In this document: in pieces, positions 21,445-36,889 of the stretch
How the letters are laid out: every line of letters starts with the position of its first letter
Numbering within the stretch: position 1 is the stretch's first letter
Source: Promethearchaeota archaeon
Lineage (GTDB): Archaea; Asgardarchaeota; Lokiarchaeia; Sigyniarchaeales; SOKP01
Direction: 5' to 3'
Assembly: GCA_011364925.1 (NCBI GenBank)
Contig: RDOA01000028.1
Location: 1 to 43,708, forward strand
DNA length: 43,708 bases
Notes under the pieces: generated by a model
The model's database searches: none
Seen by the model: the letters and a program-made list of their open reading frames with translations, nothing else
What the model was told of the DNA's origin: nothing
Translations under genes and position numbers: made by a program

Positions 21445-21834
21445 TTATTTTTGAGTCAAGTTGCGACTAGCAATTACATTTGATTCTAATCCAAGGATAT
21501 TTTCAATTAATATGTCTCCCATTACAATAGGAGCGCTTACAACTGTTTTTGCAATCTCACTTAAGGCTTCATCTAACTTCTCCTTGAGAATTGGTTTATC
21601 AGTTCTCACTGGGAGCAAGGGGAGAAATCCATTCTCGACTCTGATTGTCGTCGTTAAAATTCTTTTTGGTTCGTAATATTCTTGTTCTGCGTATTCTAAT
21701 CCTCGTTTACAAGTATATCCTTCAAACACAATATCTGAACCTTTTGAAATTGCTTGTATTTGACAACCGGTAGGGCATACTATACACCTAATAACTTTTA
21801 CAACACTCGCGCTACTTTCGCTCACTTTTAGCAC
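21445..21834 (-). CDS. DUF1667 protein of the GlpA-type operon
   Basis: This 129-residue protein carries the family's N-terminal Cys cluster RCIVCPTGCQI (C-x2-C-x3-C) and a fourth Cys in GYTCKRGLEYAEQEYYEPKR. The central 'P.R..TTT.R' strand is also conserved. DUF1667 genes routinely follow a GlpA-like dehydrogenase and a pyridine-nucleotide oxidoreductase, so this is the third subunit, perhaps binding metal or an Fe-S cluster. The upstream sequence AAGGAGGAA (21837-21845) lies very close to the listed GTG at 21834; a second GTG at 21825 gives more usual spacing. There is a 12-base gap to the upstream FAD gene. Gene and family are confident, biochemical role is not. Confidence 0.85.
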   Translation of the reverse strand: MLKVSESSASVVKVIRCIVCPTGCQIQAISKGSDIVFEGYTCKRGLEYAEQEYYEPKRILTTTIRVENGFLPLLPVRTDKPILKEKLDEALSEIAKTVVSAPIVMGDILIENILGLESNVIASRNLTQK

Positions 21835-21846
21835 TTCCTCCTTATT

Positions 21847-23145
21847 TTATTCCTCCTCGATTAATACCTCTGGTCGGGGTATTACTTCTACTGTAATTGA
21901 TTTACAAGTTGGATCAATTTTCGTTTCTTCTAAATTTAGGTTTAGCTCTATCATTTCGCTAGGAATGACATATATTTTCTTTTTCTTATAAATAACATTA
22001 TTATTTTCATCTTTAAATTGAATTTGAACTCTTCGGTCTGGATATCTTACTCTAAAAGTGAATATTATCTCTTCAGAAAGATCTCGTTTATTAATAATGT
22101 CGGGTTTTATGTAATTAACATTTTCCCCCGGAATGCATTTGATTATATCTTTTTTCTTTAGTTCCTTTCCATATCTTCCATTAATGTATTCAACTGCGTT
22201 TAATCCAGCTCTTTTAGCCTCGTTAGTAACCATATCCACCAAATCATGTACTTGTAAAACATTTCCACACGCGAATATCCCTTCGATTGTCGTTTCTAGA
22301 TTTTCGTCAATGATGGGACCGCCATTATCTGACAACTCAGCACCTGCTTGTAGCGTTAACTCATTCTCAGGAATTAAACCTACGGACAAAAGAAGTGTGT
22401 CACACTCAATAAATTTGTCCGAACCTATAATCCTATCAAAATTTCGATCAACTTTCGAAATAGTAACTCCTTTTATCCGTTCTTTTCCGTGTATTTTTGT
22501 CACAGTGTAGTTTGTAATTAGGGGAATATCGTAATCTTCAAGACATTGTACTTGATTTCGAAGTAACCCACTGACATACGGAAGTATTTCCACCACTGCT
22601 TTGACCTTACATCCCTCCCAGGTTAATCTTCTTGCCATTATCATCCCAATATCTCCACTTCCCAATATTACATATGTGCTTCCCGGTAAATATCCTTCAA
22701 TGTTTACAAATCGTTGAGCTTGTCCAGCAGTAAAGATACCTGCTGGACGAAAACCAGGGATATTAATCGCCCCTCGGGTTCTTTCCCTACAACCCATGGC
22801 AAGAACGACTGCTTTTGCTTCTACTTCAATTAATCCTTCGTTGTTATTAACAGCGTATACTTTCTTTTCTTTCGTGATTTCTATTACCATCGAATCTAAC
22901 AAATATGGGATCTTTAAGTCAATAACTTGATTAATAAATCTTTGAATGTATTCTGGACCTGTTAATTCCTCTTCAAATTCTTTCAATCCAAATCCGTTAT
23001 GAATGCACTGCAATGTGATACCCCCTAATTCTTTCGCTCTTTCAACAATTAGCACATCTAATTTCGCCTTTTTAACTTCAAGAGCGGCAGCTAATCCCCC
23101 TGCTCCCGCACCGATTACTACAACATCTGCTTTGTATTTCTTCAT
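21847..23145 (-). CDS. FAD/NAD(P)-dependent oxidoreductase of the GlpA-type operon
   Basis: The 432-residue protein has two nucleotide-binding folds. The FAD motif VVVIGAGAGGLAAALEV is at the N-terminus, a second Rossmann motif YVILGSGDIGMIMARRL around residue 155-170, and the FAD-closing GIFACGNVLQVHD near 290. An additional ~85-residue C-terminal domain is beta-rich. It lacks the redox-active CxxC of thioredoxin reductase, matching the middle subunit seen in Thermotoga-type glycerol-3-phosphate dehydrogenase clusters. It probably passes electrons between the GlpA-like subunit and NAD(P) or another acceptor. ATG at 23145 overlaps the upstream stop by 4 bases (ATGA) and follows AAGGAGGAG. Electron partner not known. 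Confidence 0.85.
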   Translation of the reverse strand: MKKYKADVVVIGAGAGGLAAALEVKKAKLDVLIVERAKELGGITLQCIHNGFGLKEFEEELTGPEYIQRFINQVIDLKIPYLLDSMVIEITKEKKVYAVNNNEGLIEVEAKAVVLAMGCRERTRGAINIPGFRPAGIFTAGQAQRFVNIEGYLPGSTYVILGSGDIGMIMARRLTWEGCKVKAVVEILPYVSGLLRNQVQCLEDYDIPLITNYTVTKIHGKERIKGVTISKVDRNFDRIIGSDKFIECDTLLLSVGLIPENELTLQAGAELSDNGGPIIDENLETTIEGIFACGNVLQVHDLVDMVTNEAKRAGLNAVEYINGRYGKELKKKDIIKCIPGENVNYIKPDIINKRDLSEEIIFTFRVRYPDRRVQIQFKDENNNVIYKKKKIYVIPSEMIELNLNLEETKIDPTCKSITVEVIPRPEVLIEEE

Positions 23146-24611
23146 TCTTCGGCTCCTCCTTTGATTGTATTGAGTCTAAAATCCTTAGTTCTCGCAATAA
23201 GGTAGTTAGTATCTTCTCCCATTTTTGTTACTTCTTCGTAGGGGATGTTTAATTCTCTTGAAAGAATTTCGATTAATCTTGGTCTACAAAAACCACCTTG
23301 GCATCTACCCATTCCAGGTCTGCACCTAAATTTAATACCGTCTAATGTGGTTGCTCCAACGGGTGAGTGGATAGCGTTTAGAATTTCTTTTTCTGGAATA
23401 GTTTCGCATCTACATATGATTCTACCCCATGTGGGATCTTCTTTGATTTTAATGTCTAACTCTTTTTTAGTAAAATCCTTAAAATTTTCAGGCTTAGGGC
23501 GGATTGGATTATAATCATCCTTAACTTTAGTGTTGACACCTAACAATTCTAAAAATTCGACTACTCGCTCAGCAATAGCATAACAAGAAGTTAAACCTGG
23601 AGATAAAATGCCAACTACATTGATAAAACCATATACATCAGTATTGTCAATAATAAAATCATAATTGTCTGATACTGCTCTCAATCCAGCAAAATTTCTG
23701 ATGGATGCTCTTACTGGTAAATTAGGGACTAATTTCTTTCCACCTTCTAAAATTTCTTTTAGTCCTGCTTCCGTTGTAGAAGTATCCTTTTTATCAGTAA
23801 TGTTCTGAGCGTTCGGTCCAACGAATGTGTTCCCACTCACAGTTGGACAAACAAGAATACCTTTAGAGATTTTAGTGGGAGTAGGAAATAAAATTTTGTT
23901 TAAATGCATTGCGTTTCTATCAAAAAGGATATACTCTCCTTTTCGAGGTGTTATTGTGAAGTAATCTAAACCAACCATTTTGGAAATTTTCGAGCCGTAC
24001 AATCCCGCTGCGTTAATAACATTGCTCGCTTTAAACTCTTTATTCTTTGTTTTAACCGTAAAGGTGTAATTTTGGTGAATAATTTTACTAACTTTTTGAT
24101 TTCGGAAGAATTTAACTCCATTCATTGCAGCATTATCAGCAAGTGCGATAGTCATTCCATATGGGCTAACGATACCCGCTGTTGGTGCATGTAATACACC
24201 GACTACTTCGTCAGTGATGTTGGGTTCCATGTATTTTATTTTCTCTTTGTCTAAAATGACTTCTAAGCCTGGTACTCCGTCTTGAGTTCCTTCACGTCTT
24301 TGTTCTTCAAGTTTTTTGATTTGGCCATCCTCTAACGCGACCACAAAAGATCCAATTCTTTGAAATGAAAAGTTCAGCTCCTCGACAGCTTGATTATAAA
24401 GTTTATTTCCTCTAATACACATATCCCGCTTTAGATATTCTCGTGGTGAGGCAAAACCTGCGTGTACTACGCCCGAATTTGCTTTACTAGTACCTGATGC
24501 AATATCAGCTTCTTTTTCCAATAAAGCAATTTTAAGATCAAATTTTGACAAAGTCCGTGCGATGCAACATCCAGTAACTCCACCACCTATAATAATAACA
24601 TCGTAGATCAA
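23142..24611 (-). CDS. glpA: Glycerol-3-phosphate dehydrogenase (GlpA-like) with a C-terminal [2Fe-2S]-binding domain
   Basis: The enzyme oxidises sn-glycerol-3-phosphate to dihydroxyacetone phosphate with FAD. The 489-residue protein starts with the FAD motif VIIIGGGVTGCCIARTL, has ASGTSKANSGVVHAGF and VVGILSPGLTSCYA, and ends with a BFD-like cysteine domain: CRCETIPEKEI and FRCRPGMGRCQGGFCRPR. This is the GlpA subunit of anaerobic G3P dehydrogenases. It opens a three-gene operon (GlpA-like, FAD oxidoreductase, DUF1667). The start is TTG at 24611 with a strong AGGAGGT (24619-24625) 7 bases away. There is no glycerol kinase or glycerol facilitator in the window, so its G3P may come from lipid turnover rather than glycerol uptake (inference). 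A hairpin precedes the operon. Confidence 0.88.
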   Translation of the reverse strand: MIYDVIIIGGGVTGCCIARTLSKFDLKIALLEKEADIASGTSKANSGVVHAGFASPREYLKRDMCIRGNKLYNQAVEELNFSFQRIGSFVVALEDGQIKKLEEQRREGTQDGVPGLEVILDKEKIKYMEPNITDEVVGVLHAPTAGIVSPYGMTIALADNAAMNGVKFFRNQKVSKIIHQNYTFTVKTKNKEFKASNVINAAGLYGSKISKMVGLDYFTITPRKGEYILFDRNAMHLNKILFPTPTKISKGILVCPTVSGNTFVGPNAQNITDKKDTSTTEAGLKEILEGGKKLVPNLPVRASIRNFAGLRAVSDNYDFIIDNTDVYGFINVVGILSPGLTSCYAIAERVVEFLELLGVNTKVKDDYNPIRPKPENFKDFTKKELDIKIKEDPTWGRIICRCETIPEKEILNAIHSPVGATTLDGIKFRCRPGMGRCQGGFCRPRLIEILSRELNIPYEEVTKMGEDTNYLIARTKDFRLNTIKGGAEE

Positions 24612-32927: not shown

Positions 32928-34658
32928 TTGAACTTAAAATACATTGTACGGAAACTTAATGGAATTTTTACCGTAAGGAATGTAAGTTATTCTCTACTTT
33001 TATTAAACGTATTTTGTTTTGTCTCCGGTGTTTTATATATTGTTATTCCTGGTTATATGTTATTTTGGGACGTATTTGGAGTAATTTTAACAATTACACT
33101 TTTTGACAACCTTTTATTAGTGTATCTTAATTTGGTGAAAGTGAACAAAAGGAGTAAACTAGGATTTAGATTATATTTAGTGGGTTTTTTCTATCTTGTT
33201 TTTATGATTTTGGCGATGTTCGGAATGGAACAAGGCAATTTAATAAGTTCTAGCACAGTTTCCGACAGTTTTTTGGGAGGATATGCATTAACTTATCTTA
33301 GTTACTTCGGGATTTTAACATTTGGAATTGGATTGGGATTATATGATATTTTAACCCGAAAAAATCCTGCTTTATGGGATAAAGAATATGGTCATGAAAG
33401 AATAAAATTCATGAAAAATGCAAGAGTTCAACAAATTCTAAGGAAATTTTTAGTCGTTGTATCGTGGAGTGGTTTTATTTTCGGCGCTTTTTGCGGTTTT
33501 ATTACAGTTTTCGGTGTATTTGAATTTGTAACAACTCAACTTACTTACATATCATCTCAGTATGGAGTTTTTCTATCGTTTATCTTCTTATCTAACACGA
33601 TCATTTTATTGAAGTTAAAGCGAGGAAGATGGGAAAGGAAGAAATTTCGAAGAGTTGCAATCGTCGGAGTTTTTATATCTGTAGCATTACTAAGTCCTCT
33701 AATGCTTTCAAAAGTGACTGCTATGGATGCTGAAGCGCGCTTTTCTGAAGCGTTTGGTCGAAATTGGCAACAGGAGATTCCTTCAGAAATTAACGACTAT
33801 TTTTTACAAACTTCGTTTTCTCCAGCAGGGTATTATTTAGGAATCCCTCCTAAAGATTGTAGAATAATAGAAAATGTTTTATTTTACGATAATGAGAGTA
33901 TTAAATTGTATTTTGATGCATATATGCCGTTAGGGAAAGGTAAAGATCTTCCAGGCCAGAATTCCACCTTAATTCGGATTCATGGGGGAGGTTGGGTATC
34001 AGGAGATAAAGGAGAGTCAAACATGATGCAGATGAATGAATATTTTGCAGCCCAAGGTTACATAGTGTTTGATATTCAATATGGATTACACGATTCCTCA
34101 ATTTCTGGAATTGATTTCATTACGCCTAGTTATAACAAGGGAGATTTTAATATTGACGATATGATTCGTCATATTGGTATATTTACAAAATATATTGGTG
34201 AAAATGCCAAAATTTATGGTGCTAATTTAGATTCTGTTTTCTTTAGTGGAGGATCTTCAGGAGGACACCTCGCAAGCGCAGCAGGCTTAGCATTATCAAG
34301 TGGAAATTATTCAAATTTGTTCAATCAAAACCTAACAGTTAAAGGAATAATCCCATTTTATCCATCAAATGGCCAAACGGTATTTTTTGGTATTGATGGA
34401 AAAGACGAATTTATTCACCCCGCGAAATTAATCATCCTGGATAGTCCCCCCTGCTTAATATTTCAAGGAACTCACGATGTTCTTACATATTTTGGCATAA
34501 GTAATCACTTCAGAGACACCTATCTTGCTAAGGGTAATAATAATTGTGCTATTATATGGATGTTGATGGGTGGCCATTCTAGTGATGTTTATTTTTCTGG
34601 GTATTACAACCAGATTTTTCTCTATTTTATGGAACGATTTATGTATCTCTACCGGTAG
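32928..34658 (+). CDS. Seven-helix membrane protein with a C-terminal alpha/beta-hydrolase (HSL-type esterase) domain
   Basis: The 576-residue protein has about seven hydrophobic segments in residues 20-265. The loops between helices 2-3, 4-5 and 6-7 are basic (VKVNKRSKLGFR, ERIKFMKNARVQ, KLKRGRWERKKFRR), so these face the cytosol and the domain after helix 7 faces outside. That domain (about 290-576) is an alpha/beta hydrolase of the HSL/esterase type: HGGGW (oxyanion motif), FFSGGSSGGHLAS (nucleophile Ser in G-x-S-x-G), and a likely acid and base in GTHDVLT and GGHSSD. It probably hydrolyses an ester outside the cell; the substrate is unknown. The start is TTG at 32928, since no ATG is in frame upstream. 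No recognised partner gene is adjacent. Confidence 0.8.
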   Translation: MNLKYIVRKLNGIFTVRNVSYSLLLLNVFCFVSGVLYIVIPGYMLFWDVFGVILTITLFDNLLLVYLNLVKVNKRSKLGFRLYLVGFFYLVFMILAMFGMEQGNLISSSTVSDSFLGGYALTYLSYFGILTFGIGLGLYDILTRKNPALWDKEYGHERIKFMKNARVQQILRKFLVVVSWSGFIFGAFCGFITVFGVFEFVTTQLTYISSQYGVFLSFIFLSNTIILLKLKRGRWERKKFRRVAIVGVFISVALLSPLMLSKVTAMDAEARFSEAFGRNWQQEIPSEINDYFLQTSFSPAGYYLGIPPKDCRIIENVLFYDNESIKLYFDAYMPLGKGKDLPGQNSTLIRIHGGGWVSGDKGESNMMQMNEYFAAQGYIVFDIQYGLHDSSISGIDFITPSYNKGDFNIDDMIRHIGIFTKYIGENAKIYGANLDSVFFSGGSSGGHLASAAGLALSSGNYSNLFNQNLTVKGIIPFYPSNGQTVFFGIDGKDEFIHPAKLIILDSPPCLIFQGTHDVLTYFGISNHFRDTYLAKGNNNCAIIWMLMGGHSSDVYFSGYYNQIFLYFMERFMYLYR

Positions 34659-34771: not shown

Positions 34772-35980
34772 ATGGAACCTTTTACAATTTTCATAAATAT
34801 TATAGGCATTATACTAGGTTATCTTATCGGTTCAATAAATCCATCTTACATTTTCGGCAGATCGAAAAAACTCGACATACGAGAACAAGGATCCGGTGTT
34901 GCTGGTACGGTTAATACATTTCAAGTTTTAGGTCTGAAATACGCTATACCAACGGGCACTTTTGATTTTTTCAAAGGTATCCTAACGATCTACTTATCTT
35001 TATTAATTGGCGCTGATTTTATATTTGCGCAAATTAGCGGGTTAGCAGTTATAGCGGGTCATGTCTTTCCTATTTATTTTAAATTTCGTGGAGGTCAAGG
35101 TATGGCAACTGCTTCAGGTATCATGCTTGCGTATTTGTTACACTATCTTCTTATTGGTCCTGAAATGCTTATCTTTATCTTCGTATATTTAATTTTCGTA
35201 CTCGGTATTTTTCTTTATGTGACGAGAATAGGTATTATTGTGGCGATTATAGCTCTTGGTTTAATTGGATACGCAGCGTTTTTGTATTATCCTGGTAATC
35301 CTTATAATCTTTTCTTTTTGATTGTTGTCGTATACAACATGTTAGTTTCGCTCTACGATACAATAAAAGGAAAAGTTATAAAAATCGAAGATGAGGATTT
35401 CAAAAGTCATTGGTGGCGAGTAGCAACGAGACCTTTTGCTTTCTTGTTCATTTTTTTTTATCTACTCTCCACTAAAATAGTAGCTCTTCTTATCATAGGA
35501 GTTGTTGCAATAGTTTTCATCGCGGTTGACATAACAAGATTCTTGAATAAACAAACAAACGAACTCCTGACAGTAAAAGTCAAATCTATTTTTCGGAAAG
35601 GTGAAGAGAAGAAGTTTTCTTCTATGACCATATTTCTTGTCGCGACTTTCATAACACTCCTATTATTCGACAAGGATATAGCTGTTACGGCCCTGACTTT
35701 TCTAATTTTTGGTGATATCTTTAGTAAAATATTTGGATTAGCTTTTGGTAAGCATAAAATATTCCAAAAGACCTTGGAAGGAACACTTGCATATTTTGGG
35801 TGTGTACTAATCTGTGGTTTTGTCCTTTACAACACTTTAGGAGTGCCTTTACTAATATTACTAATAGGAGGAATCACTGCTCCGCTTGTTGAATTATTTT
35901 CTTTTCAACTCAACGATAACTTTACAGTCTCTCTAATTAGCGGTTCTGTAATGACAGTGGCAAGAATATTTGGCCTTTAA
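34772..35980 (+). CDS. PlsY-like acyltransferase fused to a dolichol/phytol kinase-like (SEC59/DGK1/VTE5) domain
   Basis: The first half (about 1-205) is a PlsY-type membrane protein: GSINPSYIFGRSKKLDIRE, GSGVAGTVNTFQVLG, FDFFKGILTIYL and HVFPIYFKFRGGQGMATASG match the acyl-phosphate:glycerol-3-phosphate acyltransferase motifs. Two changes stand out: the Asn of 'GSGN' is Val, and the second Lys of 'GGKGVA' is Gln. The second half (about 215-402) has the CTP-dependent lipid kinase pattern, with IFGDIFSKIFGLAFGKHK, KTLEGTLAYFG and APLVELFSFQLNDNFTVSL. PlsY makes lysophosphatidate from G3P; the second domain phosphorylates a lipid alcohol. The fusion could couple both, or the first domain may act on another substrate. 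An upstream TTG (34757) is the alternative start. About ten or more membrane segments are expected. Confidence 0.75.
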   Translation: MEPFTIFINIIGIILGYLIGSINPSYIFGRSKKLDIREQGSGVAGTVNTFQVLGLKYAIPTGTFDFFKGILTIYLSLLIGADFIFAQISGLAVIAGHVFPIYFKFRGGQGMATASGIMLAYLLHYLLIGPEMLIFIFVYLIFVLGIFLYVTRIGIIVAIIALGLIGYAAFLYYPGNPYNLFFLIVVVYNMLVSLYDTIKGKVIKIEDEDFKSHWWRVATRPFAFLFIFFYLLSTKIVALLIIGVVAIVFIAVDITRFLNKQTNELLTVKVKSIFRKGEEKKFSSMTIFLVATFITLLLFDKDIAVTALTFLIFGDIFSKIFGLAFGKHKIFQKTLEGTLAYFGCVLICGFVLYNTLGVPLLILLIGGITAPLVELFSFQLNDNFTVSLISGSVMTVARIFGL

Positions 35981-36068
35981 TCATACTTATAATCGCTTTA
36001 AACCATCTTTTTTTATTTTTTCTTTGCTAAAAAAATATGATAGTTTTTGAATTTGGTAAAAAATAGTG

Positions 36069-36079
36069 TTATATATATT
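36069..36079 (+). promoter_or_regulatory. TATA box fitting a leaderless start at 36101
   Basis: The run TTATATATATT lies with its centre 27 bases upstream of the ATG at 36101, the distance expected if transcription starts at that ATG. This argues for the later start of the following gene over the upstream TTG (36047) and ATG in-frame codons. Confidence 0.5.
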
Positions 36080-36100
36080 TACTATATGTTATTTATAAGA

Positions 36101-36889
36101 ATGTCTTATATTGAAAAAAAGTATAACAGTAAAATATTAGAAGTATTCGATGAACTTACTAAATTAGAGCAAGATATTCTTGAGCTCTTTGCATTTAAAT
36201 CAATAGAATATTCTGATAAGGTCGCAAAATTATGCGCGCTTAGTACCAATAAAATAAATCTCATTCTTAAGAAATACTATCCAGAAATTAAACAGATTAG
36301 TGACAAGCTTAGAATAAAATCTCGATTGAAATTTTATTTCGATTTAATAGATAAATTGACTCATTATATACGGTGTGTAGAAGAATTTCAAAACTTAGAT
36401 GATCAGTATTACGAGACTATAATAGAATTCATCAATGATAAGGAAAATCTAATCTCGGGTAAATATAAAGACATCAGTTCTAATGAACTAACAGTTTTTT
36501 ACGACAAAAAAACACGCGAAGAATTAGAAAGAGTTCTTGCAGAAAAGATCGAAGCAGGAAGTACCCAATTCTTTACTTTCGGATCCTTGGAAGCGGAAGT
36601 TAAAAAAATTGCGAGGATCGCTGGAGCAGAAGAGATTGCAATTCTTAAGGATGAAGAGTTATTAAGAAGAGCGGAGTTTATTAACGATCCAAAAACAATT
36701 GTTCATTATTCGGTGTATTCTAAAGATGAAGATTTACTGAAAGAAATTGGCAGAGAAATAAAAAATTACCTTAACTCAAAAGGATTTGAAGCGATTATTC
36801 TCTTGTTAGAAATTACAGATACTATGCAAGAACGAGAATTTATAGCAGGATCGGTTATTACTAACGCAGATTTACTTCCTGATCCTTAA
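36101..36889 (+). CDS. Unknown protein with a helical, possibly HTH N-terminus
   Basis: No family was recognised. Starting at ATG 36101 (262 residues), residues 10-75 are helical with 'LTKLEQDILELFAFKSIEYSDKVAKLCALSTNKINLILKK', an arrangement compatible with a winged-helix or HTH domain. The central region (about 80-150) is helical and tyrosine-rich. The C-terminal part (about 165-262) is alpha/beta: QFFTFGSLEAEVKKIARIAG, an IAILKDEELLRRAEFI strand-helix, and GFEAIILLLEITDTMQERE. This could be an effector-binding domain, so a transcription regulator is possible but unproven. There is no zinc or signal motif. Confidence 0.5.
   Translation: MSYIEKKYNSKILEVFDELTKLEQDILELFAFKSIEYSDKVAKLCALSTNKINLILKKYYPEIKQISDKLRIKSRLKFYFDLIDKLTHYIRCVEEFQNLDDQYYETIIEFINDKENLISGKYKDISSNELTVFYDKKTREELERVLAEKIEAGSTQFFTFGSLEAEVKKIARIAGAEEIAILKDEELLRRAEFINDPKTIVHYSVYSKDEDLLKEIGREIKNYLNSKGFEAIILLLEITDTMQEREFIAGSVITNADLLPDP

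What the first reader, a model, noticed from the sequence alone, without database searches (positions are those of the whole stretch)
34772..35980. PlsY-like domain fused to a dolichol/phytol kinase-like domain
A bacterial-type G3P acyltransferase motif set and a SEC59/DGK1/VTE5 motif set (GD...G..FGK, K(T)LEG, DNFTV) appear in one chain. Archaea normally build lipids on G1P ethers. The PlsY half has changed 'GSGN' to 'GSGV' and 'GGKG' to 'GGQG', so the activity may be new. Similar PlsY/CDP-lipid-enzyme fusions may have been noted before in archaea; I cannot check.
Basis: partly seen in the sequence, partly recalled or inferred. Interest (0 to 1): 0.65.

Follow-up and report, generated by a model that had tools for sequence, protein, structure and literature searches.

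The report
PlsY–lipid kinase fusion in Lokiarchaea
A lokiarchaeon carries a membrane protein, probably acquired from bacteria, that joins a bacterial-type phospholipid acyltransferase whose glycerol-3-phosphate grip has eroded to a dolichol/phytol-kinase-like enzyme; because all but one of the acyltransferases of this type found in its family are this fusion, the idea that these archaea make bacterial phospholipids needs re-testing.

Summary
Confirmed: window 34772-35980 encodes 402 aa, a PlsY half (Pfam PF02660, E 8e-31) plus a SEC59/DGK1/VTE5-type kinase half. No assembly artefact: 32 of 65 genomes of this lokiarchaeal family carry PF02660 proteins, essentially all this fusion, often in tandem and also on two chromosome records; no ordinary PlsY was found, one divergent protein excepted. 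The fusion also occurs in bacteria (WOR-3, Calditrichota, Aminicenantota, Bipolaricaulota and others); Loki copies form one clade (100/99) next to WOR-3, suggesting transfer from bacteria. The C-half is not CDP-archaeol synthase. Both halves are under purifying selection, but both active sites are altered: the acyl-phosphate pocket (H97, GGxG loop) is kept, while three of four G3P-clamp residues are changed in the window (R45Q, K104Q, N180 missing), whereas most sampled standalone Asgard PlsYs keep them; the kinase clamp RKxxH reads RhxxRP. The genome lacks PlsX, FakA and FakB. Most likely: a CTP-type lipid kinase joined to a PlsY domain that no longer uses free G3P; a G3P-independent route to lysophosphatidate (acylate glycerol, then phosphorylate) is possible but unproven. 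Known parts; the architecture was not found described in the open-licence library searched.

The parts
34772..35980 (+). PlsY-SEC59-type fusion protein, 402 aa, integral membrane
34814..35332 (+). PlsY (PF02660) domain, residues 15-187
   Evidence: PF02660 E 8e-31; only PF02660 match in the genome; Foldseek to 5xj6 TM 0.68 normalised by the target
34889..34924 (+). PlsY motif 1, residues 40-51 (GSGVAGTVNTFQ): aaPlsY Ser35 kept, Asn37->Val, Thr41->Val, Arg45->Gln
   Evidence: alignment to aaPlsY and residue table; mutagenesis PMC5700162
35060..35062 (+). His97 = aaPlsY His92, acyl-phosphate pocket, kept in 62 of 62 fusions
35090..35101 (+). PlsY motif 2 GGQG, residues 107-110: phosphate-hole loop kept, aaPlsY Lys104 (G3P clamp) -> Gln
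35324..35386 (+). region where PlsY motif 3 (HxxNIxRLxxGxE) should lie, residues 185-205: absent
   Evidence: HxxN is not found at this site in any of 62 fusions; present in 10 of 15 standalone Asgard PlsYs
35390..35977 (+). SEC59/DGK1/VTE5-type kinase domain, residues 207-402
   Evidence: alignment with standalone relatives, two of which pass the PF01148 cut-off; hhalign 1.3e-17 and 1.3e-15 to two standalone relatives in the same genome; AlphaFold pLDDT 92.0
35417..35434 (+). RVATRP, residues 216-221: position of the SEC59-family RKxxH charged clamp
   Evidence: clamp described for PfPolK in PMC10849223
35711..35752 (+). GDIFSKIFGLAFGK, residues 314-327
   Evidence: D315, G322, G326 invariant in 49 fusions
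35768..35782 (+). KTLEG, residues 333-337
   Evidence: G337 invariant, K333 and E336 nearly so in 49 fusions
35915..35929 (+). DNFTV, residues 382-386
   Evidence: D382, N383 invariant in 49 fusions
32928..34658 (+). 576-aa alpha/beta hydrolase (BD-FAE) with a hydrophobic N-terminal half, just upstream and co-occurring with the fusion
   Evidence: PF20434 1.8e-17; recurrent neighbour of the fusion; close homologs in 20 of 32 fusion genomes against 1 of 33 others, genus g8 8/10 against 0/9, Fisher p 0.0007

Best explanation
A two-domain integral-membrane lipid enzyme. The C-half is a SEC59/DGK1/VTE5-type kinase that phosphorylates the hydroxyl of a membrane lipid, probably with CTP. The N-half is a PlsY domain that still binds an acyl-phosphate (or similar lipid phosphate) in the conserved His97/GGxG pocket but has lost most of the clamp for the phosphate of G3P, so its acceptor is probably not free G3P. 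Preferred coupling, inferred only: the PlsY half acylates an unphosphorylated acceptor such as glycerol and the kinase half phosphorylates the monoacylglycerol to lysophosphatidate in the same chain, bypassing G3P; PlsC proteins in the genome could then act on it. The gene probably came from bacteria and was then duplicated in tandem. Shown: architecture, conservation, altered sites, distribution, selection on both halves. Inferred: kinase activity, nucleotide, substrates, coupling, direction of transfer.
For: Architecture and folds. Kinase family: hhalign 1.3e-17 and 1.3e-15 over about 190 columns to two standalone SEC59-like proteins of the same genome, against 1.1e-5 over 80 columns to CdsA and nothing to CarS. 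Acyl-phosphate pocket kept: H92 equivalent 62/62, G102 62/62, G103 61/62; G3P clamp changed: K104 kept in 3 of 62, R45 in 18 of 62, HxxN motif absent from its site, while standalone Asgard PlsYs keep R45 15/15, K104 14/15 and HxxN 10/15. aaPlsY clamp alanine mutants lose over 92% of activity with 5- to 36-fold higher G3P Km (PMC5700162). Purifying selection, omega about 0.1 (PlsY) and 0.05 (kinase) in window comparisons. Acyl-phosphate link in bacteria: fusion, PlsY, FakA, FakB in a row in Aminicenantes L068; FakB/DegV beside the fusion in Caldisericum L079.
Against: No assay of any member was found. The Lys of the kinase clamp is lost in nearly all fusions and its His is Arg, so ordinary CTP-kinase activity is not assured. 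Arg or Lys is kept at position 45 in 34 of 62 fusions, so G3P may still bind in some members. The genome lacks PlsX, FakB/DegV and FakA/Dak2, so no known acyl-phosphate source was found in it.
Confidence: 0.45

Rival explanations
1. The PlsY half is no longer catalytic and serves as a lipid-binding or stabilising N-domain; the protein works only as a polyprenol/dolichol/DAG kinase.
For: Kinase half is about twice as constrained; PlsY G3P site eroded; no known acyl-phosphate source in the genome. Dolichol kinases carry poorly conserved N-terminal domains of unknown function (PMC11542857), and another Asgard protein joins a HAD-like region to the same kinase (L138).
Against: Catalytic-site residues of the PlsY half (H97, GGxG, D65, K68) are invariant or nearly so across Asgard and bacterial fusions, more than expected of a mere scaffold; FakA/FakB beside the fusion in bacteria.
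Confidence: 0.25
2. The PlsY half is still a G3P (or G1P) acyltransferase and the kinase half separately salvages DAG or MAG; the fusion makes bacterial-type lysophosphatidate.
For: PlsY family membership is clear; bacterial PlsY accepts both G3P and G1P (PMC13400652); part of the family keeps Arg45 and Asn37; PlsC proteins are in the genome.
Against: In the window R45Q, K104Q and loss of the N180/H177 motif; single clamp alanine mutants of aaPlsY lose over 92% of activity (PMC5700162); no PlsX or FakAB.
Confidence: 0.17
3. The kinase half phosphorylates a fatty acid to acyl-phosphate and hands it to the PlsY half in cis.
For: Would explain a PlsY domain in genomes without PlsX or FakAB and the altered kinase clamp.
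Against: No SEC59-family member is known to me to phosphorylate carboxylates; one bacterial fusion sits next to FakAB, which already makes acyl-phosphate.
Confidence: 0.08
4. The second half is CDP-archaeol synthase (CarS) or CDP-DAG synthase.
For: CdsA-type cytidylyltransferases are distantly related (hhalign 1.1e-5 over 80 columns).
Against: No match to CarS; a separate CarS gene exists; DDN and charged-clamp positions of SEC59 kinases present.
Confidence: 0.03
5. Assembly artefact.
For: The genomes appear to be metagenome-derived.
Against: 43 near-complete copies in 65 genomes of the family, two chromosome records (CP070805.1, CP070831.1), several bacterial phyla, purifying selection across both halves.
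Confidence: 0.01

Closest known systems
PlsY, acyl-phosphate:G3P acyltransferase (PF02660; aaPlsY, PDB 5xj5-5xj9)
   Same: Same family, fold and acyl-phosphate pocket
   Different: G3P clamp changed (K104Q, R45Q, motif 3 missing), joined to a kinase; scores below the NCBIfam PlsY equivalog cut-off, 99.6 against 137.2 bits
SEC59 / DGK1 / VTE5-FOLK type CTP-dependent lipid kinases
   Same: GD..G..FGK, K(T/S)LEG, DN(F/L)(T/S)V and position of the charged clamp shared
   Different: RKxxH is RhxxRP; N-terminal domain is PlsY; nucleotide and substrate untested
FakAB-PlsY fatty-acid activation route
   Same: FakA, FakB and PlsY adjoin the fusion in one Aminicenantes locus, FakB in Caldisericum
   Different: FakA and FakB were not found in the window's genome
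CDP-archaeol synthase CarS (PF01864) and CdsA
   Same: CdsA is a distant relative of the kinase half
   Different: CarS does not match and exists separately in the genome
PlsY homologs of Loki- and Thorarchaeota in the literature (PMC6737245, PMC9385802, PMC6431249)
   Same: Bacterial-type plsY genes in Asgard archaea, function stated as unresolved
   Different: The passages read do not mention a kinase domain; in this family nearly all PlsY homologs are the fusion, whereas sampled relatives in other Asgard families are standalone

Membership tests
PlsY (PF02660) | Profile match over the domain | tested here: met
   8e-31, 107.8 bits against cut-off 24.1
PlsY (PF02660) | Acyl-phosphate pocket (His92, GGxG loop) | tested here: met
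   H97, GGQG in window; H in 62/62 fusions
PlsY (PF02660) | G3P phosphate clamp Ser35, Arg45, Lys104, Asn180 | tested here: not met
   Ser, Gln, Gln, motif 3 missing
PlsY (PF02660) | Equivalog score (TIGR00023) | tested here: not met
   99.6 against 137.2 bits
PlsY (PF02660) | Acyl transfer from acyl-phosphate to G3P | not testable with these tools
   needs assay
SEC59/DGK1/VTE5 kinases | Full-length profile similarity, better than to CdsA or CarS | tested here: met
   1.3e-17 and 1.3e-15 against 1.1e-5 and 0.23; the standalone references are assigned by motifs and PF01148, not by assay
SEC59/DGK1/VTE5 kinases | GD..G..FGK, K(T/S)LEG, DNxTV motifs | tested here: met
SEC59/DGK1/VTE5 kinases | RKxxH charged clamp | tested here: not met
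   RVATRP; R216 and R220 invariant in 49 fusions
SEC59/DGK1/VTE5 kinases | CTP-dependent lipid phosphorylation | not testable with these tools
   needs assay
CDP-archaeol synthase CarS | PF01864 profile match | tested here: not met
   no Pfam hit on the C-half, hhalign E 0.23 to the genome's own CarS

The most novel reading that the evidence does not exclude
A single enzyme that makes lysophosphatidate without glycerol-3-phosphate: its PlsY half acylates an unphosphorylated polyol such as glycerol and its kinase half phosphorylates the product. This would be a new entry into ester phospholipids, present in bacteria and transferred to Lokiarchaea.
Probability: 0.18. Interest if true: 0.85.

Novelty: new variant of a known kind. 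Interest (0 to 1): 0.5.

Why it matters
PlsY genes in Lokiarchaea have been cited as a sign that archaea close to the eukaryote ancestor might make bacterial-type phospholipids. In this lokiarchaeal family nearly every such gene turns out to encode a fusion with an altered G3P site and an attached lipid kinase, probably obtained from bacteria. That weakens the simple reading of plsY as G3P acyltransferase there and turns an open question (PMC9385802: function to be elucidated) into a defined protein that can be expressed and assayed half by half.

Tried and rejected
Pfam and NCBIfam on the C-half of the window protein give nothing; it had to be placed through standalone relatives and hhalign. 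PDB sequence search with the kinase profile gives only weak CdsA (0.005), and Foldseek with the kinase half alone gives no significant solved structure. Assembly artefact rejected. CarS rejected. Own-genome supply of acyl-phosphate by PlsX, FakA or FakB not found. A gene downstream (36047-36889) recurs beside the fusion but is also present in genomes without it, so it is no evidence of partnership. The paper reporting yeast Dgk1 active-site mutants is not held, so it is not used.

Full report
Observation. The ORF at 34772-35980 (+) encodes 402 residues. Residues 15-187 match PF02660 (8e-31) and A. aeolicus PlsY (1.1e-19). AlphaFold from an alignment of 49 fusions gives a confident model (pLDDT 89.9, pTM 0.85), whose N-half matches PlsY 5xj6 (TM 0.68 normalised by the target) and whose only other hint is CDP-DAG synthetase (probability 0.47, not significant).

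Distribution. In 65 genomes of the window's family, 32 have a PF02660 match. All 43 near-complete matches lie in frames of 392-433 aa, i.e. the fusion; the remaining four are three fragments of it (two cut off by the end of a contig, one decayed) and one divergent 264-aa standalone protein in G147. Of 42 genomes at least 90% complete, 24 have the fusion, so it is accessory. Tandem pairs or triplets occur in several genomes. Named relatives are Candidatus Lokiarchaeota/Lokiarchaeia, two on chromosome records, and bacteria of WOR-3, Calditrichota, Aminicenantota, Bipolaricaulota, Thermotogota, Caldisericota, Dictyoglomota, Spirochaetota and others, plus a divergent woesearchaeal one. In the tree the Loki rows form one clade (100/99) that joins WOR-3 and Caldithrix (98/94, 99/99); the simplest reading is one transfer from bacteria to Loki. 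The root is uncertain and several bacterial branches are long.

Kinase half. Standalone relatives in Zixibacteria, WOR-3 and Poribacteria align over the whole half; two of the sampled relatives pass the PF01148 cut-off. The profile matches two standalone proteins of the window's own genome at 1.3e-17 and 1.3e-15, E. coli CdsA at 1.1e-5 over 80 columns, and the genome's own CarS not at all. The SEC59/VTE5 family has a charged clamp Arg-Lys-x-x-His, proposed from a model of the Plasmodium prenol kinase (PMC10849223). Standalone relatives mostly show RKxxH; fusions show R-hydrophobic-x-x-R-P as a rule, with both Arg invariant in 49 sequences. So the half is in the superfamily, but one hallmark is altered.

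PlsY half. With aaPlsY numbering (PMC5700162), the acyl-phosphate pocket is kept: His92 in 62 of 62 fusions, Gly102 62 of 62, Gly103 61 of 62. The G3P clamp is Ser35, Arg45, Lys104, Asn180. In the window these are Ser, Gln, Gln and missing; His177 is missing too. Across 62 fusions Lys104 survives in 3 and Arg45 in 18 (Lys in a further 16). Among 15 standalone PlsYs from other Asgard families Arg45 is 15/15, Lys104 14/15, and motif 3 (HxxN) 10/15. The HxxN pattern was not found at its site in any fusion; four chance matches lie elsewhere in the scanned stretch. Window-to-relative omega is about 0.09-0.12 for the PlsY half and 0.04-0.06 for the kinase half, so neither half is decaying. This was computed by the Nei-Gojobori method; dS is high, near or beyond saturation in the more distant pairs, and the figures are rough.

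Metabolic context. The genome has CarS and PlsC-type proteins, including a frame of 560 aa with two PF01553 domains, but no PlsX, FakB/DegV or FakA/Dak2 was found. In Aminicenantes L068 the fusion is followed by a standalone PlsY, FakA and FakB; in Caldisericum L079 a DegV/FakB gene lies next to the fusion on the other strand. This ties the family to acyl-phosphate in bacteria, in two loci only. Upstream of the fusion in the window and many Loki loci lies a 576-aa alpha/beta hydrolase with a hydrophobic N-terminal half. Its close homologs (E below 1e-180, a limit chosen after seeing the list) occur in 20 of 32 fusion genomes and 1 of 33 others, and in genus g8 in 8 of 10 against 0 of 9 (Fisher p 0.0007). 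Related genomes are not independent and the genes are linked, so this shows an island gained or lost together rather than a proven functional partnership.

Interpretation. Shown here: a conserved two-domain membrane protein with an intact acyl-phosphate site, an eroded G3P clamp and an altered SEC59-type kinase half, wide in bacteria and Lokiarchaea. Inferred: it phosphorylates a lipid hydroxyl and uses its PlsY half on an acceptor other than free G3P. The specific scheme acyl-phosphate + glycerol -> MAG -> LPA is my preferred but unproven coupling; the scaffold rival and the canonical rival remain open.

Literature. Loki/Thor plsY genes are known and their function is called unresolved (PMC9385802, PMC6737245, PMC6431249). 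Bacterial PlsY takes both G3P and G1P (PMC13400652). No paper in the open-licence library holds both PlsY and dolichol kinase; subscription papers were not searched, so prior description cannot be excluded.

Noticed in passing
G000:C38:89021-90205 (own genome, outside the window): A frame of 560 aa holds two PlsC-type (PF01553) domains; similar double-domain frames of about 550-580 aa recur through the family, beside a single-domain protein of about 240 aa.
   Followed up: partly
window 21445-24611 (-): GlpA-like FAD protein (DAO plus BFD-like domain), NAD(FAD) oxidoreductase and DUF1667: resembles an anaerobic glycerol-3-phosphate dehydrogenase operon about 10 kb from the fusion; the first gene recurs near the fusion in ten loci. 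Published surveys report such genes as rare in Asgard.
   Followed up: partly
L138 (another Asgard genome, G175): A HAD-phosphatase-like N-terminal region fused to a SEC59-like kinase, recognised by eye: the kinase may be a module joined to different lipid domains.
   Followed up: no
L114, L115 (own genome): Two standalone SEC59-like kinases with the ordinary RKxxH clamp, PF01148 just over the cut-off.
   Followed up: partly
L145 (G140:C9): Decayed fragment of a fusion copy with an internal stop, suggesting birth and loss of tandem copies.
   Followed up: partly
L143:353-1147 (G147:C89): Divergent 264-aa standalone PlsY-like protein without the ordinary motif 1, the only standalone PF02660 protein found in the family.
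   Followed up: partly
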